A DNA stretch of 64,000 nt from Limnohabitans sp. B9-3 (GTDB lineage Bacteria; Pseudomonadota; Gammaproteobacteria; Burkholderiales; Burkholderiaceae_C): contig NZ_NESI01000004.1 in NCBI RefSeq assembly GCF_002778325.1, forward strand, positions 124,001-188,000. The letters run 5' to 3'. A program made the position numbers and the translations under genes. The notes below the pieces were generated by a model. That model saw only the letters and a program-made list of their open reading frames with translations. It was not told where the DNA came from and did not search any database. Every line of letters starts with the position of its first letter. Position 1 is the stretch's first letter. This document shows positions 9,948 through 29,691 of this stretch, piece after piece.

Positions 9948-11197
9948 CGGTCAATTTCCCCGAACACAATGTCCATGGTGCCAATCACCGCCACGGTGTC
10001 AGCGATCATGTGGCCACGCGCCATTTCGTCCATGGCTGCCAAATGGGCAAACCCTGGGGCGCGAATCTTTAAACGGTAAGGCTTGTTGGCACCATCGCTC
10101 ACGAGATAGATACCAAACTCACCCTTGGGATGCTCGACAGCGGCATACGCTTCGCCCTCGGGCACATGAAAACCTTCGGTGAAAAGTTTGAAATGGTGGA
10201 TCAACTCCTCCATGTTCGACTTCATACCTTCGCGGCTAGGCGCGGCCACTTTGTGGTTGTCTGTGATGACCGGACCGGGGTTGACGCGCAACCAGTCGAC
10301 ACACTGTTTGATGATGCGGTTGGACTGACGCATTTCTTCCACACGAACCAAATAGCGGTCGTAGCAGTCACCGGTTTTGCCCACAGGAATATCAAAGTCC
10401 ATGCGGTCATACACGTCGTAAGGCTGGTGCTTGCGCAAGTCCCAAGTGATGCCAGAACCACGCAACATGGCGCCCGTGAAACCGAGGTTTTTCGCGCGCT
10501 CTGGGGTGACCACACCGATACCGACGGTGCGTTGTTTCCAGATGCGGTTGTCGGTCAACAGGGTTTCGTACTCGTCCACCAATTTGGGGAAACGTTGCGT
10601 GAAATCGCCGATGAAGTCGAGCAAAGAGCCTTGGCGGTTTTCATTCAAACGCGCAATCGCTTTCGCATTTTTGATCTTGCTGACTTTGTACTGAGGCATC
10701 ACGTCTGGCAAGTCGCGGTAGACACCGCCTGGACGGAAGTAAGCCGCATGCATGCGCGCGCCAGACACGGCTTCGTACATGTCGAACAAGTCTTCACGTT
10801 CGCGGAAGCAATAAATCAAGATGTTCATCGCGCCGCAGTCGAAACCATGGCAGCCCAACCACAACAGGTGGTTGAGCAAACGGGTGATTTCGGAATACAT
10901 CACACGGATGTACTGCGCACGCTCTGGCACTTCGAGCCCCATCATTTTTTCGATGGCCAAGCAGTAAGCGTGCTCGTTACACATCATGGACACGTAGTCG
11001 AGACGGTCCATGTAGGGCAAAGATTGAATGTAGGTTTTGCTCTCAGCCAGCTTTTCAGTGGCACGGTGCAACAAGCCGATGTGTGGGTCAGCGCGCTGGA
11101 CCACTTCGCCATCGAGTTCAAGCACCAAGCGCAAAACGCCGTGTGCAGCAGGATGTTGAGGACCCAAGTTCAGGGTGTAGTTCTTGATATCAGCCAT
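9944..11197 (-). CDS. nuoD: NADH-quinone oxidoreductase subunit D
   Basis: 49-kDa-type subunit that forms the quinone site with NuoB (417 aa). It opens with the conserved [14 protein letters not shown] and contains the [19 protein letters not shown] and DVVVIG-like C-terminal blocks of the family (here [16 protein letters not shown] at the end). It is a separate gene from nuoC, unlike the fused nuoCD of enterobacteria. It follows nuoC by 2 bases and overlaps nuoE by four. Confidence 0.97.
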
Positions 11198-19219: not shown

Positions 19220-20275
19220 TCAGCCTAATTCAGCCAAAGGCCAGCGTGGTCGAATATCAAACCCGTAGTGATGAAGCGCTTGAGCTTGTCCACCCGAACC
19301 GCTTTGCAAGCGCATGGCAGCAGCCATCGCAATCATGGCGCCGTTGTCTGTGCACAAATGCAATTCGGGGTAATGCACGCGCACGCCTTGACGCTTGCAA
19401 GCGGCATTGAGTTGTTCGCGCAAATGCCGGTTGGCCCCTACGCCACCGGCCACCACCAAGCGCTTCAAGCCGGTTTCACGCAAGGCCGTGAGTGATTTTT
19501 TCAACAGCACATCCACAATCGCAGCCTCGGTCGATGCGGCCAAATCAGCCTTGCGGGCTTCTAAATCATCACCCAGTTTTTTGGCTTGGGTCATGACCGC
19601 CGTTTTCAAACCGGCAAAAGAAAAGTCCAAATTTCCGTTGTGCAGCAGCGGTCGCGGCAACTTAAAAGCAGCCGGATCGCCCTGCTCCGCCAACTTCGAC
19701 AAAGCAGGACCACCGGGGTAACCCAAGCCCATCAGCTTGGCAGACTTGTCAAACGCTTCACCCGCCGCATCGTCAATGGTTTCACCGAGCAATTCATAAC
19801 GACCCACACCATCGACGCGCATGAGCTGTGTGTGCCCACCCGATACCAGCAAAGCCACAAACGGAAACTCAGGCGGATCGGCACTCAAAAAAGGCGACAA
19901 CAAGTGCCCCTCCAAATGGTGCACACCCAACACAGGCTTTTGCAGCGCAGCGCCCAGCGCACACGCCACGCCTGCGCCCACCAGCAACGCACCCGCTAAG
20001 CCAGGACCTCGGGTGTAAGCCACCACATCGATGTCTTGCAAACTTTTTTGAGCCTCGGCCATCACCTCACGCGCCAGCGGAATCACCCGGCGAATGTGGT
20101 CACGGCTCGCCAACTCGGGCACCACACCGCCGTAGGCTTGGTGCATGGCAATTTGGCTGTACAGGGCGTGCGATAGCAATCTTGGCAGCACCGGTTGCGG
20201 CTCAGGGTGCGCGTCTAATTCCACGAGCGCAACACCCGTTTCATCGCAGGAAGATTCAATACCAAGGATCAACAT
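19220..20275 (-). CDS. tsaD: tRNA N6-adenosine threonylcarbamoyltransferase
   Basis: Universal enzyme that, with TsaB and TsaE, transfers threonylcarbamoyl to A37 of ANN-decoding tRNAs (351 aa). It begins [19 protein letters not shown] and has the metal-binding histidines in [11 protein letters not shown] and GVHHLEGH and the nucleotide-binding [11 protein letters not shown] and [11 protein letters not shown] blocks of the Kae1/Gcp family. Standard length. It is followed on the same strand by the receptor gene after a 76-base gap. Confidence 0.98.
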
Positions 20276-20301: not shown

Positions 20302-20496
20302 TTACTTGGACGGGATGTCGGGGTGAGTCGCCGAAGACAGACTGGGCGCGTCTGGCACGCTGGAGCCCGTCGCAGCGGGGGCATCAGCACGGGAAAAACT
20401 CATTTTCTCGCCATCCCAGCGCTGGCCGCACCAGCACACACCATCGGCGTTGATGATGCAGGTTCCGGTGCCGCAGCACCTCACGTCATCGGTCAT
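20302..20496 (-). CDS. Small cysteine-rich protein, function unknown
   Basis: 64-aa protein whose first half is packed with cysteines: [10 protein letters not shown] then [14 protein letters not shown]. The second half is low-complexity (Ala, Ser, Pro). I recall similar short proteins with the CCGTGTC...CWCGQ pattern in Burkholderiales, so I judge it real; it could bind a metal ion or cluster. It has a good ribosome site (AAGGATGAGAC) and is divergent from the LitR-like regulator, sharing the palindrome-containing gap with it. It ends 26 bases before tsaD on the same strand. Confidence 0.65.
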
Positions 20497-20566
20497 GTCT
20501 CATCCTTCAGGTTGGACGTTAAAACTAAGTTGCGTTGAATTTTTAAGGATAAACCTACGCGACACC

Positions 20567-20582
20567 TTGAATATCTATTCAA
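20567..20582. promoter_or_regulatory. Palindromic operator candidate for the MerR/LitR-like regulator
   Basis: Perfect inverted repeat TTGAATA-TC-TATTCAA in the gap between the divergent small protein gene and the MerR-type gene, with further half-like sites nearby (TTGAAT at 20535, TTTCAA at 20591, CTCAAATA just before the start codon). The left half could serve as a -35 element for the regulator gene. MerR-family regulators, including LitR/CarH, bind inverted repeats overlapping promoters and usually control themselves. Confidence 0.5.
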
Positions 20583-20626
20583 ATAAAATATTTCAACACA
20601 TAATCTACGCAAATTCTACTCAAATA

Positions 20627-21658
20627 ATGATGTCAAACACCAGTGCCCTGCCAACAACCGCTCTGTACCGCATTGGTGCTGTGTCCAAAACCGCAGGCAT
20701 TCCTGTGTCGACGCTGCGCATTTGGGAGACGCGCTACGGCGCATTCACCCCCGTCAAGACCGAAGGCAAGCAGCGTTTGTTTGCCGAGCACGATGTCTCG
20801 AAAGCCTTGCTGCTCAAACAGCTGTCGCAAAACGGCCATGCCATCAGCACCATCGCCAACCTCGACCTAGAGCAACTTCGCCGCATGAGCAACTTGCCGC
20901 ACCACACATCGCCGAGCGTGGTGACACCTGGCCTGCCCGTCTCATTGGCGGTGGTCGGCCTGAGCATGGCCAATCGGATTGAATCCCAGAAATTTGCAGC
21001 GGGCTTGAAACAAAACCAAATCAAAGTCACCGATGTGTTGCAGGACTTGAGCACCGCCTCACAGGCCGAGTTGCCTCAGCAACCGCAGGTACTGCTGGTC
21101 AAAGTCAACACCTTGCAAACAACGGTGCACACCGACCTTCAAGCGCTGGTTGCCAAGCATAAATTTGCGCAAACCATCGTTATTTATAACTTTGCAACGG
21201 ATGCGGTGGTTCAGGCCATGAAGTTTTCGGGTTTCATCGTGCGGCGTGAACCCATCTCCGACATCGAGTTGGCTGAGTTGCTGCAATCGGTTTTGTTTGT
21301 CGATCCTGAGCGTGCGCAAGAGTTCGGCACCACGGGGGCAGTCATTGCGGCACGTAAATACTCAGACGCCACCCTCAGCCGCGTGGCGGGCATTTCTACC
21401 AATGTGCTGTGCGAATGCCCGCGCCATGTGGCCGAGCTGATTGCACAGCTTGCCAGCTTTGAGCAATACAGCCAAGAGTGCTTGAATCGAAACGCCGAAG
21501 ACTCACACCTGCACGCTTACCTGCGCTCTATTTCAGGGTCTGCACGCTCGCTGTTTGAAAACGCTTTAGAAAAAATTGCAGCGCATGAAGGCATTGATTT
21601 GCGGGACGATGTGCGGCCCCAAGATCGCCACGTCGCCGTGTTTCACGGAAAAAAATGA
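20627..21658 (+). CDS. MerR-family regulator, class II LitR-like (no B12 motif)
   Basis: 343-aa regulator with an N-terminal MerR winged helix (residues about 14-70: YRIGAVSKTAGIPVSTLRIW, then ETRYGAFTPVKTEGKQRLF). The rest is a degenerate Rossmann-like region and a helical C-terminal domain with LCECPRHVAELIAQL and FEQYSQEC. The cobalamin-binding DxHxxG-type motif of CarH/LitR class I is absent. I recall that class II LitR of Pseudomonas putida also lacks it and controls photolyase genes; the gene's overlap with a photolyase (ATGA) supports that role. No ribosome site marks the start; 20630 is equally possible. Confidence 0.8.
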   Translation: MMSNTSALPTTALYRIGAVSKTAGIPVSTLRIWETRYGAFTPVKTEGKQRLFAEHDVSKALLLKQLSQNGHAISTIANLDLEQLRRMSNLPHHTSPSVVTPGLPVSLAVVGLSMANRIESQKFAAGLKQNQIKVTDVLQDLSTASQAELPQQPQVLLVKVNTLQTTVHTDLQALVAKHKFAQTIVIYNFATDAVVQAMKFSGFIVRREPISDIELAELLQSVLFVDPERAQEFGTTGAVIAARKYSDATLSRVAGISTNVLCECPRHVAELIAQLASFEQYSQECLNRNAEDSHLHAYLRSISGSARSLFENALEKIAAHEGIDLRDDVRPQDRHVAVFHGKK

Positions 21659-22974
21659 CACATCCGGCCACCATCTCGGGCGTCGTTTACTGGTTCAGAA
21701 ACGACCTGCGCCTCCACGACAACCCAGCCCTGCAACACGCCATCGCACTGGCCGAGCGGCACCGTACGTGGCTGCTGCCGGTTTATGTGCACGACACCGC
21801 CTTGCAATTGACCAGCCCTTGGGGCTTTGTGCGCACCAGCGAGCACCGCTTAGCCTGGGCGGCCATGGCCGTGCACGATGTGAGCGAACAGTTGGCTGCA
21901 CTTGGCAGCCAGCTGCTACAAATCAGTGGCGATCCTAGCCAGGTGCTGGCCGAGCTGATGACCCGCCTCGGTGCCAGCACACTGGTGTGCGAAGACATTG
22001 CGGCCCCCTACGAAGAGGCCCACATCCAAGCCCTGCAAAAAGGAGGACGAGAGGTGCAGACCGTGTGGCAATCCACGTTGATGGCCCCCGACCAACTGCC
22101 CTTCGAGCCGCACGATGTGCCCGATGAGTTTTCTAGCTTTCGCCGCGCCGTTGAGCGCCATGCGTGCGCACCGGCCAAGCCAGCAGCCGCCATCACACGC
22201 CTGCCTGCGCGGCCGGAGAACCTGCCACACGACGCCCTAGCAACCCACGCCAGCACCTACACCCCACTGAACGATCCACGCTCTGCATTTCCTTGGTCGC
22301 AGCCTGCGTTTCATGGCGGCGAACGTGCGGCACTTGCGCATCTGGCGCAATACTGCAGCCGAGGTTTGCCGCACAGCTACAAGGCCACGCGCAATGGACT
22401 TTATGGGGCCGATTACTCCACCAAGTGGTCACCGTGGTTGGCCACTGGCGCGCTGTCTGCGCGTCAGGCATGGGCGGCCATTCAGGCCTTTGAAGCGCAA
22501 CACGGTGCCACGGACAGCACCTACTGGATCAGCTTTGAGCTGCTGTGGCGCGACCACTTCCGCTGGCTGCACCTCAAGTACGGCGAGCGCATGTATTGGC
22601 AACGTGGCTTGTCGGACGCCCCGTTACAACAACGCGCCCACAACGCACGCGGCTTTGAGCGCTGGCGCACAGGCCAAACGGGCCACGCGCTGATTGACGC
22701 AGGCATGCGCGAACTCAACGCCACAGGCTATTCGTCCAACCGTTTGCGGCAAAACCTAGCGAGTTTTTTGATCCACGATTTGCACGGCGATTGGCGTGCC
22801 GGTGCCGCTTGGTTTGAATCGCAGCTGATTGACTTTGACATCTACAACAACCAAGGCAACTGGTTGTACCTCAGCGGTCGCGGCACTGACCCCAGAGGGT
22901 CCAGGCGCTTCAACCCCGATAAGCAGGCACACGACTACGACGCCGACGGCACTTACCGCAAACTCTGGCTTTGA
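21655..22974 (+). CDS. Photolyase/cryptochrome, DASH family
   Basis: Flavoprotein (439 aa) that uses blue light to repair cyclobutane dimers, in this subfamily preferentially in single-stranded DNA. The N-terminal antenna domain begins VVYWFRNDLRLHDNPAL; the FAD-binding domain has TGALSARQAW, WISFELLWRDHFRW and, near the C-terminus, NNQGNWLYLSGRGTDPRGSR and FNPDKQAHDYD, which mark CRY-DASH. The start overlaps the regulator's stop by four bases, so the two are translated together and probably light-induced together. Confidence 0.93.
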   Translation: MTHPATISGVVYWFRNDLRLHDNPALQHAIALAERHRTWLLPVYVHDTALQLTSPWGFVRTSEHRLAWAAMAVHDVSEQLAALGSQLLQISGDPSQVLAELMTRLGASTLVCEDIAAPYEEAHIQALQKGGREVQTVWQSTLMAPDQLPFEPHDVPDEFSSFRRAVERHACAPAKPAAAITRLPARPENLPHDALATHASTYTPLNDPRSAFPWSQPAFHGGERAALAHLAQYCSRGLPHSYKATRNGLYGADYSTKWSPWLATGALSARQAWAAIQAFEAQHGATDSTYWISFELLWRDHFRWLHLKYGERMYWQRGLSDAPLQQRAHNARGFERWRTGQTGHALIDAGMRELNATGYSSNRLRQNLASFLIHDLHGDWRAGAAWFESQLIDFDIYNNQGNWLYLSGRGTDPRGSRRFNPDKQAHDYDADGTYRKLWL

Positions 22975-23026
22975 AACGCTGGCTTGTCCATCCCCTGATC
23001 GAACACCTGCTGGAGCAACTGCCGTC

Positions 23027-23689
23027 ATGCGCTTAAACACTCACACCCTCATCGCCTTGTTGGCTGGATTTTTATGGATGGAACCGACCATGGCCACGGA
23101 AGAACCTCGCTACGACGTGCGCATCGCGCAAGGCCCCTTCGAGCTGCGGCACTACGCGCCCACCTTGATCGCCGAAACCGTGGTGGACGGCGACATGGAT
23201 GCTGCATCTGGCAAAGGCTTTCGCTTGATTGCTGATTACATCTTTGGCAACAACCGCGCTGCGGGCTCACAACAAGCCGCCAAAATTGCCATGACGGCCC
23301 CTGTGACGATGGAGCCCCAATCTTCAAAAATTGCCATGACAGCGCCCGTCACCATCGAGCCACAATCGGGCAACACCGCGATGGTTGAGGCGAACCAATG
23401 GCGCATCCACTTTGTCATGCCCAGCCAATACACCTTGGCCAACATTCCCAAACCCAACAACAGCGCGGTGACCTTGCGCGAGCTACCGCACAAGTACTTT
23501 GTGGTGTACCGCTACTCGGGCTTCAACACGCAAGCGGGGGTGCAAGAAAAAACCAACGAAACCTTGGCATGGGCCAAGCAACAATCCCTTCAGGTGATAG
23601 GCACGCCGCAGCTCTCGCGCTACGACCCGCCTTGGACGCTGCCCATGTTCAGGCGCAACGAAATCATGGTGGAAGTCGCCGCGCCATGA
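23027..23689 (+). CDS. SOUL-family heme-binding protein
   Basis: 220-aa protein with an N-terminal signal-like segment (residues 1-24, MRLNTHTLIALLAGFLWME) followed by a SOUL domain (YDVRIAQGPFELRHYAPTL, DYIFGNNR, VTLRELPHKYFVVYRYSG). A nearly exact tandem repeat of KIAMTAPVT-EPQS occupies 23281-23372. SOUL proteins bind heme or porphyrin; the bacterial role is unclear. The start is the ATG with GGAG ten bases upstream. It lies 52 bases after the photolyase on the same strand, probably in one operon; SOUL genes are recurrent companions of light-induced photolyase genes. Confidence 0.88.
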   Translation: MRLNTHTLIALLAGFLWMEPTMATEEPRYDVRIAQGPFELRHYAPTLIAETVVDGDMDAASGKGFRLIADYIFGNNRAAGSQQAAKIAMTAPVTMEPQSSKIAMTAPVTIEPQSGNTAMVEANQWRIHFVMPSQYTLANIPKPNNSAVTLRELPHKYFVVYRYSGFNTQAGVQEKTNETLAWAKQQSLQVIGTPQLSRYDPPWTLPMFRRNEIMVEVAAP

Positions 23690-23739
23690 TCGCCAGCGCC
23701 TACGTGGCGCTACGCCAACAGCGCTAAAACACAGACCCA

Positions 23740-25002
23740 TCACACCACAGGCACTTGCTGCCAGTCCGTGGTGTAGCTCGGCGACTTGTGGTTTTGGTTC
23801 ATTTGCCAGGTCTTGAAAGCGCCTTGCGTCGACACCTTGACTGTGCCGCGGCCATAGCGTTGGTTCAAGCCATCAATCACAGCCATCAAGTGGCTGGCTG
23901 GGGCTTGCGCAGGCTCTAGCCAATCGGTTTGGTGCGTGGTGACGGCCGAAATATCGCTCAGCATGATGCCGGCTTTTTTGTAGCCGTACCCCTCTTTGAA
24001 CAAGCGACTCACCAAGTAATCAGCCCAGCGGTTGACCACCAAACTGTCTTGCGTGGGCTGCGGCAGCGGCAAGGTGAATGACGGGTTGTACTGAGGCTGG
24101 TCTGGGCGAAACCGGTTGGTGCGCAAAAACACGTGAATGGCCCCCGCGTGCGAGCCCTGCGCGCGCAGCTTGACGCAGGCATTGGCCGCAAAGGTGCTCA
24201 TGGCGTCTTGCAGCACGACCAGCTCGTGGACGGTTTGGCCAAAGGATCGGCTGCACACAATTTGCTGCTTGTCGGGCGCCATGTCTTGCAGTGCGAGGCA
24301 GGCCACGCCTTGCAGCTCGCGCTGCGTTTTCTCTAACACCACACCAAACTCGGCACGCAAGGTGGGCGTGTGTGCACCGCGCAAATCAGCGGCCGTGTGA
24401 ATGCTGTGTTCAGCCAGCCGTGCGCTCAGGCGTTGGCCGACGCCCCACACCTCGCCTACCTCAATTTGGCCCAAGATGCGCGCTTGCTGGGCGTCGCTCA
24501 AATCGTTGTAATTGAAAACGCCTTTAGACCTCGGGTGCTTCTTGGCAATGTGGTTGGACAGCTTGGCTAAAGTCTTGGTCGGGCCAATGCCCACACACAC
24601 CGGAATGCCTGTCCAAGCGATCACGCGGTCACGCATTTGGTAACTCAGGGCTTTGAGTTGGGGCATGCCCGTGAGGTCGACAAAACACTCGTCAATCGAA
24701 TACACCTCATGTTGCGGGGCATAGTCAGCAAGGATGGACATGACGCGGTTGGACATGTCGGCGTACAACGCGTAATTGGAGCTCAGGGCCACCACGCCTT
24801 GCTCTTTAGCCTGTTGCGCGTACGCAAACCACGGCTGGCCCATGCGCACGCCCAAGGCCTTGGCCTCGTTGGAGCGTGACACCGCACAGCCGTCGTTGTT
24901 GGACAGCACCACCACGGGCACGCCCTTCAAGTCGGGGCGAAACAAGCGCTCGCAACTGACGTAAAAGTTATTGCAATCGACCAAGGCAATTTGCGAGGGC
25001 AT
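23740..25002 (-). CDS. umuC: DNA polymerase V catalytic subunit UmuC
   Basis: Y-family translesion DNA polymerase (420 aa). Catalytic acidic residues are present in [16 protein letters not shown] and [14 protein letters not shown]; the [19 protein letters not shown] segment and the [18 protein letters not shown] helix-hairpin region are typical. A C-terminal little-finger domain follows. It is the third gene of a minus-strand operon umuD-cho-umuC, 21 bases after cho, and needs UmuD' for activity. Expression is expected to be LexA-controlled from the promoter before umuD. Confidence 0.96.
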
Positions 25003-25023
25003 GGGGTTCAGAGTGTTGCGGAC

Positions 25024-25917
25024 TTACCGCGCTGGCTCAACCACCGCTGTTTTCAGCATGATGGGCCGCACCAAAATTTTGTAGCTGTCCAAATCAAACT
25101 CGCGCGGCGCTGCGTCGCTCAACGCCAAGGCTTGACCGAAGTGCGGAGACGGCGGAGACGGCGAAGATGGCAATGACCGCGAGCACTGCGTGCCCAAATA
25201 ACACCAGTTGTTCACACGGTGGCGCTGCACCCAAGTGCCCGAGGTTTCCACCACATCCACCGCACCGGCAAAGGGCCACACCTCAACCTGCGAATCACAC
25301 AGGGCCGAGAACAAACGCGCGTCATGAATGCCTCGATCTTCCTGGCCCACACACACGCCCAAACAGGTTTTGATTTGCACCCCAAAGCAGCCGCGCTGGC
25401 CGGCTTTCTCAAGCCCCAACACCGACAAACACAAGCTGTGCTGCTCGGCCAAGGCCTTGAGCTTGGCCGCAGCCGCATGCGGCGATGCAAACAAACCGTA
25501 CAGCGCAGGCGTGGTGCCCAGGTTGACCAACTTGCTGTCCACCACCTCGGGCACCAACCCAGCGGGCGACTGCACCAAACGAATCGAACACAAGCTGCGA
25601 ATACGACGCAGCCGCTGGTTGAACAGCGGGTTGTCGGTTTTGATCATGCGCGACTCCAACAGCAAAGCACCCATCTCACCCGCGGTTTCGATGAAATCGA
25701 TGCGGCGCGTTTGCGCCACCATGCGCGCCTCGTCGGGCGCGCGCAGGTGGCTCATGACGCGGCTGCGAATGTCCACACTTTTGCCAATATACAAAGGCAA
25801 GGGGCTGTCACCTCGAAAAATATACACACCCGCGCCGCGTGGCAACGCCGCCAAACTGTCGGGGTCAATCTGGTGGGTCAGCACAGTTTGTGGATGTTGT
25901 GGGTCACCACGCCCCAC
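25024..25917 (-). CDS. cho: Excinuclease Cho (UvrC-like endonuclease)
   Basis: GIY-YIG nuclease homologous to the N-terminal half of UvrC; in Escherichia coli Cho is SOS-induced and makes 3' incisions at bulky lesions. GVYIFRGDSPLPLYIGKSVD, the SRVMSHLRAPDEARM helix and ALLLESRMIK are the catalytic core, and CFGVQIKTCLGVCVGQED matches the Cho cysteine region. About 297 aa, like the E. coli protein (295). The start is uncertain: GTG at 25917 overlaps umuD by 40 bases; GTG at 25884 would overlap by 7. Neither has a good ribosome site, so translation may be coupled to umuD. Confidence 0.9.
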   Translation of the reverse strand: MGRGDPQHPQTVLTHQIDPDSLAALPRGAGVYIFRGDSPLPLYIGKSVDIRSRVMSHLRAPDEARMVAQTRRIDFIETAGEMGALLLESRMIKTDNPLFNQRLRRIRSLCSIRLVQSPAGLVPEVVDSKLVNLGTTPALYGLFASPHAAAAKLKALAEQHSLCLSVLGLEKAGQRGCFGVQIKTCLGVCVGQEDRGIHDARLFSALCDSQVEVWPFAGAVDVVETSGTWVQRHRVNNWCYLGTQCSRSLPSSPSPPSPHFGQALALSDAAPREFDLDSYKILVRPIMLKTAVVEPAR

Positions 25918-26318
25918 ACCACGAAGTCGTCTTCTTCTTTGATGCGTCGGGGTTCGTAACTTGGGTTTTCGGCCATCAGCTGCACCACGCCCGCGCGTCG
26001 GTGCAAGCGCTTGACCGTGAACTCGTTGTTGAGCTGTGCCACCACAATGTGGTTGTGCTTGGGGTCAATGCTGCGGTCTACCAGCAAGGCGTCGCCCTCG
26101 TAAATGCCGACCCCTGTCATCGAATCGCCCTTGACACGAAACACATACGTGGCCGCTTTGTTGCGAATCAAATGTTGATTGAGGTCGATGCGTTCTTCGG
26201 TGTGGTCGGCTGCTGGCGACGGAAATCCCGCAGGCACCAACCAGCCGCACACATCCAGCCACACGCCGCCCACGTCCAGTGGCAGCATAGGATGAGAGAG
26301 TTCTTTTAAATGTGACAT
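25878..26318 (-). CDS. umuD: DNA polymerase V accessory protein UmuD
   Basis: Self-cleaving LexA-like protein; RecA filaments trigger cleavage to UmuD', which activates UmuC. With the start at the ATG at 26318 (146 aa) the cleavage site is Ala30-Gly31 in VPAGFPSPAADH (Cys-Gly in E. coli), the nucleophile is Ser66 in KGDSM and the general base Lys103 in FTVKRL; the 37-residue spacing equals that of E. coli Ser60/Lys97. It is first in the operon and lies just downstream of a LexA box. Confidence 0.95.
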   Translation of the reverse strand: MSHLKELSHPMLPLDVGGVWLDVCGWLVPAGFPSPAADHTEERIDLNQHLIRNKAATYVFRVKGDSMTGVGIYEGDALLVDRSIDPKHNHIVVAQLNNEFTVKRLHRRAGVVQLMAENPSYEPRRIKEEDDFVVWGVVTHNIHKLC

Positions 26319-26330
26319 TTGCTTATAATA

Positions 26331-26346
26331 CTGTACAAATAAACAG
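26331..26346. promoter_or_regulatory. LexA (SOS) box
   Basis: CTGT-N8-ACAG (CTGTACAAATAAACAG), an exact match to the gammaproteobacterial/betaproteobacterial LexA core, preceded by TA as in the extended consensus. It is 12 bases upstream of the umuD start on the minus strand and 28 bases upstream of the DUF2256 start on the plus strand, so it could repress both directions. Confidence 0.85.
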
Positions 26347-26374
26347 CCCAATTCAAGACACGCCCGACCACACC

Positions 26375-26542
26375 ATGCCGCCAAAAAACACGTTCAAAGG
26401 CAACAAGCAAAGCCTGCCCAGCAAACCCTGCAAAACCTGCGGGCGCGACATGACGTGGCGCAAAGCGTGGGCCAAAAACTGGGAACAGGTGCTGTACTGC
26501 TCAGACGCTTGCCGCAAAAACAAATCGGCCACGCCCCCATGA
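26375..26542 (+). CDS. DUF2256 zinc-ribbon-like mini-protein
   Basis: 55-aa basic protein with CKTCGRDMTWRKAWAKNW and YCSDACRK: four cysteines (19, 22, 42, 46) that could bind one zinc. This is the DUF2256 family, which is typically encoded next to photolyase/cryptochrome genes; its function is unknown to me. Its stop overlaps the start of the following photolyase (ATGA), so the two products are made together. The gene is divergent from umuD across the LexA box. Confidence 0.85.
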   Translation: MPPKNTFKGNKQSLPSKPCKTCGRDMTWRKAWAKNWEQVLYCSDACRKNKSATPP

Positions 26543-28116
26543 GCTACGCACTGGTTTGGTTCAAACGTGACCTGCGCTGGCAAGACCACGCGGCGTTGGC
26601 CAACGCTGCGCAGCAAGGGCCTGTCCGCTGCATTTACGTGGTCGAGCCCGAGCTGTGGCTGCAACCCGATGCCGCCTTGCAGCACTTTGAGTTTGTGCGC
26701 GAATCGCTGCAAGCACTGGATGCTGAGCTGCGTTTGCAAGGCGGCTGCGTAGAAGTGCACACGGGTGAGCTGCCCGAGGTGTTGAGCCGCATTTGGCAAG
26801 AAGCGCCCTTTCGCACACTGCACGCGCACCAAGAAACCGGCAATGGCTTTACTTATGCGCGTGACCTACAAGTGGGCGCGTGGTGCAAAGCCCACGGTGT
26901 GGGATGGCATGAGACCCCTCAGTTTGGTGTGGTGCGTGGGCTGAGAAACCGCAACTTGTGGCAGCCTGCTTGGGAAAGGCACATGGCAGAGCCTGTGCGA
27001 GATGTGGGCGCTTTGCAGTTTTGGCAATGCCAGACATTGAGCCGCGCTGGGTGCACCCCCTCGCAGATGCAAGCCCCCGCGCACCTGCAGCACAACCCGC
27101 CGCTGCGCCAACGTGGTGGCCGCCCGTTAGCCTTGGCCACCTTGCACAGTTTTTTGCATGCCCGCAGCTTGGGCTATCGCGGTGGCATTTCGTCGCCGCT
27201 GTCGGCACCCGATGCATGTTCGCGCCTGTCGGCGTATTTGGCTTGGGGCTGCATCAGCATGCGCGAGGTGGTGCAGCACACGCGCGCTCAGATCGCCCAG
27301 CTGCCTCCCAGCGCCAGCCGACACCGTGCAGGATTAACGGGCTTCATCAGCCGTTTGTATTGGCACTGCCACTTCATCCAAAAGTTAGAGAGCGAACCCG
27401 CCATCGAGTGGCACAACATGCACCGAGGCTACGACGGTTTGCGCGAACACGATTTCAACGAAGCGCACTTTGAAGCCCTCAAAGCCGCCCGCACCGGTTG
27501 GCCCATGGTCGACGCGTGTGTGACCATGCTGCGCGAGACGGGCTGGCTGAACTTTCGCATGCGGGCCATGCTGGTGTCGGTGGCGGCTTACCCTTTGTGG
27601 TTGCACTGGCGGCCCGTGGGCGAGTGGCTGGCCACGCAGTTTTTAGATTACGAGCCGGGCATCCACTGGAGCCAGTTGCAAATGCAATCAGGCACCACAG
27701 GGATCAACACCACACGCGTTTACAACCCCATCAAACAAGCGCAAGACCACGACCCACACGGCCGCTTCGTTCGTCAGTGGTTGCCCGAGTTACGCCAAGT
27801 GCCCGACACTTGGCTGTTTGAACCTTGGCTCATGCCGCACACCATGCAAGTGCACCTCGGTGTATTTGTCGGCACTGACCTGGCGCAACCCGTGGTCGAC
27901 TTAACCCAAGCAACACGCGAAGCGAAGCAATTGCTGCACAGCCGACGCCAAACCGACGAGGTCAAAGCCGCAAAAAAAGCGGTGGTCGACAAACACGCCT
28001 CGCGTAAAAACTGGGGTACAAGCACAAGCGCACGCCGCACACCTACACGCAAAGCAACACGAGCCTCTGCCGACACCACCCAAGCTGCCAAAGCGCAACT
28101 TGGTTTCGATTTTTAA
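26539..28116 (+). CDS. Cryptochrome/photolyase family FAD protein
   Basis: 525-aa member of the FAD_binding_7 photolyase family, distinct from the DASH protein upstream. Antenna domain begins ALVWFKRDLRWQDHAALA; the FAD domain has LSAYLAWGCISMREV, GFISRLYWHCHFIQKLES, TGWPMVDACVTMLRETGWLN and DYEPGIHWSQLQMQSGTTG. The last 70 residues are a Lys/Arg/Thr/Ala-rich tail (SRKNWGTSTSARRTPTRKAT) that could bind DNA. I cannot tell repair enzyme from photoreceptor by eye. The DUF2256 gene is coupled upstream and the iron-sulfur photolyase follows after 9 bases. Confidence 0.9.
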   Translation: MSYALVWFKRDLRWQDHAALANAAQQGPVRCIYVVEPELWLQPDAALQHFEFVRESLQALDAELRLQGGCVEVHTGELPEVLSRIWQEAPFRTLHAHQETGNGFTYARDLQVGAWCKAHGVGWHETPQFGVVRGLRNRNLWQPAWERHMAEPVRDVGALQFWQCQTLSRAGCTPSQMQAPAHLQHNPPLRQRGGRPLALATLHSFLHARSLGYRGGISSPLSAPDACSRLSAYLAWGCISMREVVQHTRAQIAQLPPSASRHRAGLTGFISRLYWHCHFIQKLESEPAIEWHNMHRGYDGLREHDFNEAHFEALKAARTGWPMVDACVTMLRETGWLNFRMRAMLVSVAAYPLWLHWRPVGEWLATQFLDYEPGIHWSQLQMQSGTTGINTTRVYNPIKQAQDHDPHGRFVRQWLPELRQVPDTWLFEPWLMPHTMQVHLGVFVGTDLAQPVVDLTQATREAKQLLHSRRQTDEVKAAKKAVVDKHASRKNWGTSTSARRTPTRKATRASADTTQAAKAQLGFDF

Positions 28117-28125
28117 AAAGCCCAC

Positions 28126-29691
28126 ATGACCACACCCCGACAACGCCTCATCCTCATCTTGGGCGATCAGCTCGACGAAGACGCCTCTGCCCTGAGCGAC
28201 TTCAACCCCGCACACGACACGCTGTGGATGGCCGAGGTGTTGGAAGAATCCACGCACATTCCCTCGTCCAAGCAACGCACCACGGTTTTCTTAAGCGCCA
28301 TGCGCCACTTCGCAGCGCACCTGCAAGCACGCGGCTGGCCGCTGATTTACAGCCAACTCGATGACCCACACAACTCAGGTACGCTGGCGGGTGAATTGGC
28401 CAAAGCCATCGCCCAAGTCAAGCCGCAACAACTGGTGATGACCGCCCCCGGCGACTGGCGCGTGTTGCAAAGCCTGCGCGCTGTGGCCCAACAACACGAC
28501 TTGCCACTGGAGATCAAAGACGACACGCACTTCTTCAGCACCGTGCGCGACTTTGCCGCCCACGCCGCGGGTCGCAAGCAGCTGCGTCTTGAATACTTTT
28601 ACCGTGAGCTACGCCAGAAAAACGGCATCCTGATGGAAGGCAAAAAACCCATCGGCGGCCAATGGAACTTTGATGCCGACAACCGAGGCAGCTTTGGCAA
28701 ACAAGGCCCAGGACTGCTGCCCGCCCCCACACGCGTAACCCCCGACACCATCACCCAAGATGTGATGGACATGGTCAATAAAAAATTAGCGCATCACCCA
28801 GGCTCAATTGCCCAATTTGGCTGGCCCGTGACACGCGCACAGGCCTTGGTCGCGCTGTATGAATTCATCACTCACCGACTGCCCAGCTTCGGGCTGTACC
28901 AAGATGCCATGTGGGAAGGCGAAGTGTGGCTGTACCACTCTCACCTGTCGTGTGCGTTGAACCTGAAGCTGCTCAACCCACGCGAAGTGGTAAGTGCGGC
29001 AGAGGCCGCGTTGCACAAGGGCCATGCGCCCCTAGAAGCGGTCGAAGGTTTTGTGCGGCAAGTTTTGGGCTGGCGTGAATACGTGCGCGGCATTTACTGG
29101 ACCCACATGCCCGACTACGCCGAAGGCAACGCTCAGCAAGCCCACGAGCCGCTGCCCGCGTTTTACTGGACCGGCAACACCGAGATGGCTTGCTTGCGCG
29201 ACGCCATTGGCCAAACCCTGCAACACGGCTATGCACACCACATTCAACGCTTGATGGTCACAGGCCTGTATGCCTTGATGCTGGGCGTAGAGCCCAAACA
29301 AGTGCACCAGTGGTACCTCGGTGTGTATGTAGACGCGGTGGAGTGGGTCGAGCTGCCCAACACCTTGGGGATGAGCCAGTTTGCCGATGGCGGCCTGATG
29401 GCCAGCAAACCTTATGTGGCCAGTGGCAAATACATAGACCGCATGAGCAACCATTGCAAAGGATGCCGCTTCAACCCCGCCGAATCCACAGGCGACACGG
29501 CCTGCCCCTTCACCACCTTGTATTGGGATTACCTAGGCCGCCACGCCGACATGCTGGCCAAAAACCCGCGCATGCTGATGCAACTGAAAAACCTCAACCG
29601 TCTCACCCCTGAGCAACGTGAGGCTATTGCCACGCAGGCACAGACACACCGCACCCAACTTCGCGCCAAAGAAAAAGCCCCCCAAGCCTGA
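28126..29691 (+). CDS. Iron-sulfur photolyase, (6-4)-type (FeS-BCP/PhrB-like)
   Basis: 521-aa protein of the bacterial iron-sulfur photolyase/CryB group (LILILGDQLDEDASAL opening; FWREYVRG-like block LGWREYVRGIYW). The four cluster ligands are Cys356, Cys444, Cys447 and Cys460 (MACLRD and HCKGCRFNPAESTGDTACPF), each six residues after those recalled for Agrobacterium PhrB (350, 438, 441, 454), a (6-4) photolyase. It is the last gene of the DUF2256-photolyase operon. Its final codons lie inside the terminator of the convergent icd gene. Confidence 0.93.
   Translation: MTTPRQRLILILGDQLDEDASALSDFNPAHDTLWMAEVLEESTHIPSSKQRTTVFLSAMRHFAAHLQARGWPLIYSQLDDPHNSGTLAGELAKAIAQVKPQQLVMTAPGDWRVLQSLRAVAQQHDLPLEIKDDTHFFSTVRDFAAHAAGRKQLRLEYFYRELRQKNGILMEGKKPIGGQWNFDADNRGSFGKQGPGLLPAPTRVTPDTITQDVMDMVNKKLAHHPGSIAQFGWPVTRAQALVALYEFITHRLPSFGLYQDAMWEGEVWLYHSHLSCALNLKLLNPREVVSAAEAALHKGHAPLEAVEGFVRQVLGWREYVRGIYWTHMPDYAEGNAQQAHEPLPAFYWTGNTEMACLRDAIGQTLQHGYAHHIQRLMVTGLYALMLGVEPKQVHQWYLGVYVDAVEWVELPNTLGMSQFADGGLMASKPYVASGKYIDRMSNHCKGCRFNPAESTGDTACPFTTLYWDYLGRHADMLAKNPRMLMQLKNLNRLTPEQREAIATQAQTHRTQLRAKEKAPQA

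What the first reader, a model, noticed from the sequence alone, without database searches (positions are those of the whole stretch)
20302..29691. Combined light-repair and SOS-mutagenesis island
Within 9.4 kb the window holds a LitR-like MerR regulator, a DASH photolyase, a SOUL protein, umuD-cho-umuC, DUF2256, a second photolyase and an iron-sulfur (6-4)-type photolyase. Seen directly: gene order, ATGA couplings and a LexA box. Known: each family acts in UV damage or light response. Inferred: the block is a functional sunlight-damage module with two inputs, light (LitR-like) for direct reversal and RecA/LexA for error-prone bypass and back-up excision. Individual families are known, but a joint module of this content is not one I recall described.
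Basis: partly seen in the sequence, partly recalled or inferred. Interest (0 to 1): 0.75.

Follow-up and report, generated by a model that had tools for sequence, protein, structure and literature searches.

The report
SOS genes inserted in light-repair cluster
A freshwater bacterium carries a fairly common light-response DNA-repair gene cluster into which an error-prone, damage-induced (SOS) gene set has been inserted backwards, possibly leaving half of the cluster beside a damage-controlled switch.

Summary
The genes are as described: MerR/LitR-like regulator, CRY-DASH, SOUL (+); umuC, cho-like, umuD (-); DUF2256, photolyase-like protein, FeS-BCP (+); plus a perfect LexA box at 26331-26346. 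The joint module is not general. The light cluster without umuDC recurs in Burkholderiales. The umu operon inside it was seen only in the window and three kin (L004, L005, L009): one insertion between folB and a pterin dehydratase gene; two same-genus genomes keep umuD-cho-umuC elsewhere. Of 140 other UmuC loci none had a photolyase, LitR or DUF2256 hit. L097, L024/L027 and L031 also have umuDC near photolyase genes. New here: a conserved operator candidate, CTACKCAA-N3-CTACKCAA, before litR (window 20605-20623), with none before DUF2256-phr-FeSBCP, whose 56-bp leader holds the LexA box and umuD promoter region. Most likely: light controls litR-dash-SOUL, while the back half is expressed from the umuD-side region and may answer to LexA. 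That step is inferred, and kin show that the older array was not always tied to litR. New variant of a known kind; interest moderate.

The parts
20605..20623 (+). candidate LitR operator CTACGCAA-ATT-CTACTCAA (two 8-bp units at 11-bp spacing) upstream of litR
   Evidence: conserved upstream of litR in relatives; 14 matches at up to 1 mismatch in window stretch + 80 loci, 0 for the reversed pattern; only perfect site in the genome
20627..21658 (+). litR-like MerR regulator: HTH, Rossmann-like domain, helical C-terminal domain
   Evidence: Pfam MerR_1; 18-sequence alignment; model pLDDT 71, pTM 0.43, top Foldseek hit CarH 5c8f E 2.4e-4
21655..22974 (+). CRY-DASH family protein, ATGA overlap with litR
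   Evidence: TIGR02765 over cut-off; PDB 1np7 E 4.3e-92
23027..23689 (+). SOUL-family protein (internal 15-aa tandem repeat)
   Evidence: PF04832; translation
23740..25002 (-). umuC (Pol V catalytic subunit)
   Evidence: IMS, IMS_C, DUF4113; NF002955 423 bits
25024..25917 (-). cho-like GIY-YIG excinuclease (start probably about 25884)
   Evidence: NF007833 282 bits, below curated cut-off 367
25878..26318 (-). umuD
   Evidence: NF007621 over cut-off
26331..26346 (.). LexA box CTGTACAAATAAACAG in the umuD/DUF2256 divergent gap
   Evidence: identical in L004, L005, L009
26324..26329 (+). TATAAT (-10-like) facing DUF2256, overlapping a -10-like TATTAT on the umuD strand; no good -35 on either strand
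   Evidence: read; not called by the consensus scan
26375..26542 (+). DUF2256 (small Cys-rich protein)
   Evidence: PF10013
26539..28116 (+). photolyase-family protein with non-canonical active-site residues
   Evidence: PF00875+PF03441; alignments; contrast with L261
28126..29691 (+). FeS-BCP / (6-4)-photolyase family (PhrB/CryB type)
   Evidence: PF04244; PDB 9hnk, 3zxs, 4dja; 4 Cys invariant in 6 sequences

Best explanation
A light-response photorepair cluster of a LitR-type kind was split by the insertion of a reversed umuD-cho-umuC SOS operon in one Limnohabitans-like clade. Shown: gene content, orientation, the insertion point (between folB and the pterin dehydratase gene), absence from the window of neighbours that kin have there, and the operator-candidate and LexA-box positions. 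Inferred: litR-dash-SOUL is light-controlled (LitR leaves its operator in light), umuD-cho-umuC is LexA-controlled, and DUF2256-phr-FeSBCP, separated from everything upstream, is transcribed from the 56-bp divergent umuD promoter region, so that LexA may influence it too. It is a composite locus made by one insertion, not a conserved module.
For: L002, L008 and L100 lack the insertion and have folB followed by, or fused to, the dehydratase gene, in one plus-strand array down to FeS-BCP; L004/L005/L009 have lipoprotein-umuC-(cho)-umuD reversed at that point. Same-genus G080 and G184 hold umuD-cho-umuC elsewhere (L102, L103). litR lies upstream of FeS-BCP on the same strand in 15 of 80 loci, 9 of them with no reversed ORF of 100 aa or more between except ones overlapping the FeS-BCP gene. 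Operator pattern: 14 matches vs 0 control; 12 precede litR, one starts about 31 bp before DUF2237 (L008) and one 72 bp before FeS-BCP (L043). No operator at up to 2 mismatches lies between litR and FeS-BCP on the plus strand in the window, L004, L005 or L009. LexA box and adjacent TATAAT are identical in the 4 insertion genomes. CCACACCATG at the start codon is kept although the gene behind it is the dehydratase in L004/L005/L009 and DUF2256 in the window. One LexA gene in the genome.
Against: No expression data. In L004, L005, L008, L009 and L100 a reversed gene follows litR at once, so in these nearest kin the array is not one transcript with litR; only L008 has a second operator before the array, and L100 (no insertion) has none at up to 2 mismatches. 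So earlier LitR control of the back half is not shown in the nearest kin. The plus-strand TATAAT lacks a good -35 and the scan called no promoter there. A promoter inside umuD could drive the back half. The same TATAAT sits by the umuD box in L104-L106, where another gene faces it. The four insertion genomes are one event. LitR binding is untested.
Confidence: 0.56

Rival explanations
1. One reading: a selected, functional sunlight-damage module whose two inputs (light, RecA/LexA) are kept together because joint presence is useful.
For: 6 of 77 genomes with both FeS-BCP (PF04244) and UmuC (PF13438) matches have them within 15 kb, 0.93 expected under random placement. Clusters in L097 (umuCD, SRAP, DCC1-like, phr, DUF2256, dash, FeS-BCP), L024/L027 and L031. 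In L109 umuDC lies beside DUF2237, a dehydratase-like hit and cho.
Against: The 6 include the window and three from one genus, so only 3 other genera; in those three (L104-L106) transporter-like genes lie between and no other gene of the light cluster was hit. 0 of 140 other UmuC loci; none of 14 class-wide genomes.
Confidence: 0.2
2. Neutral neighbourhood: the umu operon landed here by chance in one clade, each part keeps its own control, and DUF2256-phr-FeSBCP uses a weak or internal promoter.
For: UmuDC neighbourhoods in the survey are otherwise unrelated to light genes; the genome has a canonical photolyase elsewhere (L261); several cluster genes of kin are absent from the window; in L100, without the insertion, the array shows no operator match either.
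Against: Insertion at a gene boundary shared by four genomes; back-half ORFs remain open and the leader next to the start codon was kept through the later deletion.
Confidence: 0.34

Closest known systems
LitR/PplR/PmlR light-inducible photolyase operons of Pseudomonas (PMC9758184, passages read) and class III LitR of Burkholderia multivorans (Sumi 2018, not held; recalled)
   Same: MerR-family regulator near photolyase/cryptochrome genes and, in kin, pterin-synthesis genes; [quoted passage not shown]
   Different: The operator proposed here (CTACKCAA repeats) differs from the TGTACA-N12-TGTACA of class II PmlR2; umuD-cho-umuC is inserted
umuDC (Pol V) SOS operons
   Same: umuD first, umuC last, LexA box at the umuD promoter
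   Different: a cho-like gene lies between umuD and umuC (also in L102, L103, L098); the operon faces a photolyase operon across the LexA box
SOS gene neighbourhoods with SplB-type photolyases (PMC3765255, passages read)
   Same: a DNA photolyase linked by neighbourhood to mutagenic-repair genes
   Different: SplB is a radical-SAM enzyme; here the neighbours are flavin photolyase-family proteins
CarH
   Same: HTH plus Rossmann-like domain in the model; top Foldseek match 5c8f, though with low TM 0.22-0.26; 11-bp operator repeat (CarH repeat recalled)
   Different: no B12-binding Pfam domain; in the model the helical domain follows the Rossmann-like domain, in CarH it precedes it (recalled)

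Membership tests
class III LitR | MerR-type HTH | tested here: met
   PF13411 47.6 bits, cut-off 21.6
class III LitR | C-terminus without recognised B12-binding domain | tested here: met
   no Pfam or NCBIfam B12 domain matched outside the HTH
class III LitR | genomic link to photolyase-family genes | tested here: met
   15 of 80 loci have litR upstream of FeS-BCP on the same strand
class III LitR | sequence relation to B. multivorans LitR | not tested
   that paper was not held and the sequence was not sought
class III LitR | light-weakened DNA binding | not testable with these tools
   needs protein
FeS-BCP | DPRP domain and four cluster Cys | tested here: met
   PF04244; C356, C444, C447, C460 invariant in 6 sequences
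CRY-DASH | TIGR02765 over cut-off | tested here: met
   435.6 vs 317 bits
CPD photolyase (gene at 26539) | canonical residues of class I enzymes (E..WR, NRLRM, NNGGW; roles recalled) | tested here: not met
   query has ISRLYWHCHF, NFRMRA, IHWSQL; the own-genome protein L261 has the canonical ones
Pol V operon | umuD, umuC and LexA box | tested here: met
   UmuC 423 vs 431 bits NCBIfam cut-off, over the Pfam cut-offs
Cho | NF007833 over cut-off | tested here: not met
   282 vs 367 bits, best of 14 families; called Cho-like only

The most novel reading that the evidence does not exclude
Regulatory capture: by inserting backwards into a light-response photorepair array, the umuDC operon's divergent LexA-controlled promoter took over DUF2256-phr-FeSBCP, so that a (6-4)-type photolyase operon became part of the SOS regulon while litR-dash-SOUL beside it stays light-controlled.
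Probability: 0.27. Interest if true: 0.6.

Novelty: new variant of a known kind. Interest (0 to 1): 0.4.

Why it matters
If true, it is a natural rewiring in which photoreactivation genes come under DNA-damage control by a single insertion, with close kin lacking the insertion as ready controls. It also offers a testable operator for LitR-like regulators of Burkholderiales and a clear prediction of which part of the cluster answers which signal. If the regulatory step fails, the locus is an ordinary light-repair cluster with an SOS operon that landed in it.

Tried and rejected
Class II LitR operator (TGTACA-N12-TGTACA): between 19000 and 30500 only a TGTACA at 26332, inside the LexA box, one at 20158 within the tsaD ORF, and two TATACA at 25788 and 25821 inside cho; rejected as a LitR site. 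General umuDC-photolyase module: rejected. TATAAT facing the photolyase side as special to the insertion: of 142 umuD loci 54 had a strict box and 7 of these the perfect TATAAT, 4 being the insertion genomes and 3 (L104-L106) facing another gene, so not specific. Cho next to FeS-BCP in L017/L026 as SOS control: no perfect LexA box in the stretches scanned, only one-mismatch ones. One unbroken litR-to-FeSBCP transcript in the nearest kin: rejected after (reversed gene behind litR in L004, L005, L008, L009, L100); for this I lowered the best explanation from 0.62 to 0.56 and the novel case from 0.30 to 0.27, and raised the neutral rival from 0.30 to 0.34. Literature: among the papers listed by searches I saw no title or abstract start that describes umuDC within a LitR/photolyase cluster or a LexA-controlled flavin photolyase; only passages of six papers were read and the two LitR papers of Sumi were not held, so this is weak evidence of novelty. 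Dropped before the count: G188 (FeS-BCP match below cut-off, UmuC 9.5 kb away; L099). G277 was kept with no UmuC position, its weak match not being among the listed places.
Full report
Observation. Family scores are in the observation check. Two names need care. The Cho-like protein is below the NCBIfam cut-off for Cho (282 vs 367 bits). The 'second photolyase' at 26539 lacks residues that mark class I CPD photolyases: ISRLYWHCHF where E. coli has NELIWREF. This stretch and GWLNFRMRA / EPGIHW are invariant or nearly so in a 15-sequence alignment, all 75% identical or more to it, and L097, 59% identical, keeps them. The same genome holds a protein with the canonical residues on contig C17 (L261). 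The role of those residues is recalled.

What the light part is. In 80 FeS-BCP loci (the best 80 kept of 583 confirmed; many cut by contig ends) hits were: DUF2256 63, phr-like 34, DASH-like 20, litR 16, SOUL 13, cho 7, umuC 6. Some DASH hits are only about 33% identical, and the roughly 47% phr hits may be another subfamily. In close kin the array also holds DUF2237, FolB, pterin-4a-carbinolamine dehydratase and a 115-aa protein without a family. This resembles published LitR-type light regulons: in Pseudomonas they include phrB, cryB and folE/folX/folM (PMC9758184, passages; see also PMC11417400, passages). For B. multivorans class III LitR I rely on memory (paper not held) and on the sentences in PMC9758184. 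Some of the 120 listed homologues carry a source's name 'light-induced transcriptional regulator'.

Operator. Upstream regions of litR in 14 loci were printed and share a CTACKCAA direct repeat. Searching CTACKCAA-N3-CTACKCAA with up to one mismatch gives 14 hits in the window stretch plus 80 loci and none for the reversed pattern; 12 precede litR, one starts about 31 bp before DUF2237 in L008 and one 72 bp before FeS-BCP in L043; L100, outside that count, has one before litR. The pattern was drawn from most of the same litR promoters; the hits in L035, L043 and the second in L008 are the independent ones. Of the 14 regions used, L058 fits only at 2 and L059 only at 3 mismatches; L022 and L030 are nearly the same sequence. 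In the whole genome one site is perfect (window 20605-20623) and two have one mismatch. Those two face, downstream, ORFs that look like a RecD-like helicase and a bactofilin (names recalled); a DUF2805 gene and an Rrf2 gene lie divergently. Up to two mismatches the genome has 7 hits against 13 for the reversed control, so weak matches mean nothing. LitR binding is inferred.

The insertion. L002 (one open frame) and L100 (from its sequence) have folB fused to the dehydratase, and L008 has the two genes 30 bp apart. L004, L005 and L009 have lipoprotein-umuC-(cho)-umuD, reversed, at that point; L009 gave no cho hit. The window has umuC-cho-umuD but none of DUF2237, folB, the lipoprotein, the dehydratase or the 115-aa gene. 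Two same-genus genomes keep umuD-cho-umuC elsewhere at 60-85% identity (L102, L103). So the block looks like one event in one clade, followed by loss.

What the kin say against a simple split. In L004, L005, L008, L009 and L100 a reversed gene of about 250-290 aa follows litR at once. The array DUF2237-SOUL-folB-dehydratase-...-FeSBCP was therefore not one transcript with litR there. L008 has its own operator before DUF2237; L100, L004, L005 and L009 have none at up to 2 mismatches between litR and FeS-BCP. In more distant kin litR does run into the array: of the 15 loci with litR upstream of FeS-BCP on one strand, 9 (L011, L012, L013, L022, L030, L035, L040, L058, L059) have no reversed ORF of 100 aa or more between, apart from ones overlapping FeS-BCP itself; L042 and L045 are unclear. 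LitR control of the older array is thus likely in some lineages and not shown in the nearest.

How it probably works. In the window litR-dash-SOUL follows the operator without a reversed gene. DUF2256-phr-FeSBCP has only 56 bp before it (26319-26374, if umuD starts at 26318), holding the LexA box and overlapping -10-like hexamers on both strands. LexA bound there would be expected to hinder transcription both ways; this is inference. Against it: no -35, no promoter called by the consensus scan, and the TATAAT also occurs in L104-L106 facing another gene.

Is the joint module general? Among 77 sampled family and order genomes with both PF04244 and PF13438, 6 have them within 15 kb (window; G031; G092; G281, G325, G464 of one genus), 0.93 expected (one genome had no listed UmuC position, one weak case was dropped). 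These 140 leave out ten UmuC loci fetched earlier, five of which (L097, L098, L104-L106) have FeS-BCP; among the other five, L109 has DUF2237, a dehydratase-like hit and cho, and L108 a weak DUF2256 hit. In 369 class-wide genomes, 14 others had both families over cut-off and none had them within 60 kb on one contig (read by eye). Further assemblies: L097 (umuCD, SRAP, DCC1-like, phr, DUF2256, DASH, FeS-BCP; the photolyase-family proteins 41-59% identical to the window's), L024/L027=L098 (umuC-cho-umuD 2.9 and 5.5 kb from dash-phr-FeSBCP) and L031 (umuD-cho-umuC 6.6 kb beyond FeS-BCP). The linkage is rare, perhaps somewhat above chance.

LitR structure. The model (mean pLDDT 71, pTM 0.43) has an HTH, a Rossmann-like domain and a helical end; the best Foldseek hit is CarH 5c8f (E 2.4e-4, TM 0.22-0.26), among many receiver-like folds. 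It is a lead, not proof. The C-terminal domain has invariant C262, C264, H267, C285, H294 and H296 in 18 sequences.

Verdict. Observation confirmed; interpretation partly supported. A known kind of light cluster, altered by a rare SOS insertion, with an inferred and testable regulatory split.

Noticed in passing
window 26539-28116: Photolyase-family protein with a conserved but non-canonical active site, overlapping DUF2256; the genome has a protein with canonical residues elsewhere (L261). Its function may not be CPD repair.
   Followed up: partly
window 26375-26542; 63 of 80 FeS-BCP loci: DUF2256 is a very frequent neighbour of FeS-BCP; the search listed 2 papers that mention it, and their abstract starts give no function.
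   Followed up: partly
L017 9048-10001; L026 about 121-1017: A cho-like gene alone, less than 100 bp upstream of FeS-BCP; in L017 a palindromic element of about 40-base arms lies on both sides of it, as if moved as a cassette; in L026 it is seen in the gap.
   Followed up: partly
L097 8376-16545: Cluster in another genus: umuCD, divergent SRAP, DCC1-like protein, phr, DUF2256, DASH, FeS-BCP, with a LexA box at 10148.
   Followed up: partly
L109 7061-11713: umuDC beside DUF2237, a dehydratase-like hit and cho, that is, beside genes of the light cluster but no photolyase hit.
   Followed up: no
L134 1501-1519; L135 1501-1519: One-mismatch LitR-operator-like sites in the own genome; DUF2805 and Rrf2 genes lie divergently, other ORFs downstream.
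   Followed up: partly
L004 1907-2782, L005 2133-3008, L008 4945-5712, L009 1474-2250, L100 6553-7311: A reversed gene of about 250-290 aa directly behind litR in near kin, with no Pfam match in L008; absent behind litR in the window.
   Followed up: partly
L002 1080-1778: FolB and the pterin dehydratase form one open frame (fusion) in this relative.
   Followed up: no
window 23027-23689: SOUL protein carries a tandem 15-residue repeat, KIAMTAPVT(M/I)EPQS plus one residue.
   Followed up: no
window 20627-21658: LitR C-terminal domain has invariant CECP.H, C and H.H residues in an 18-sequence alignment, a possible cofactor site.
   Followed up: no
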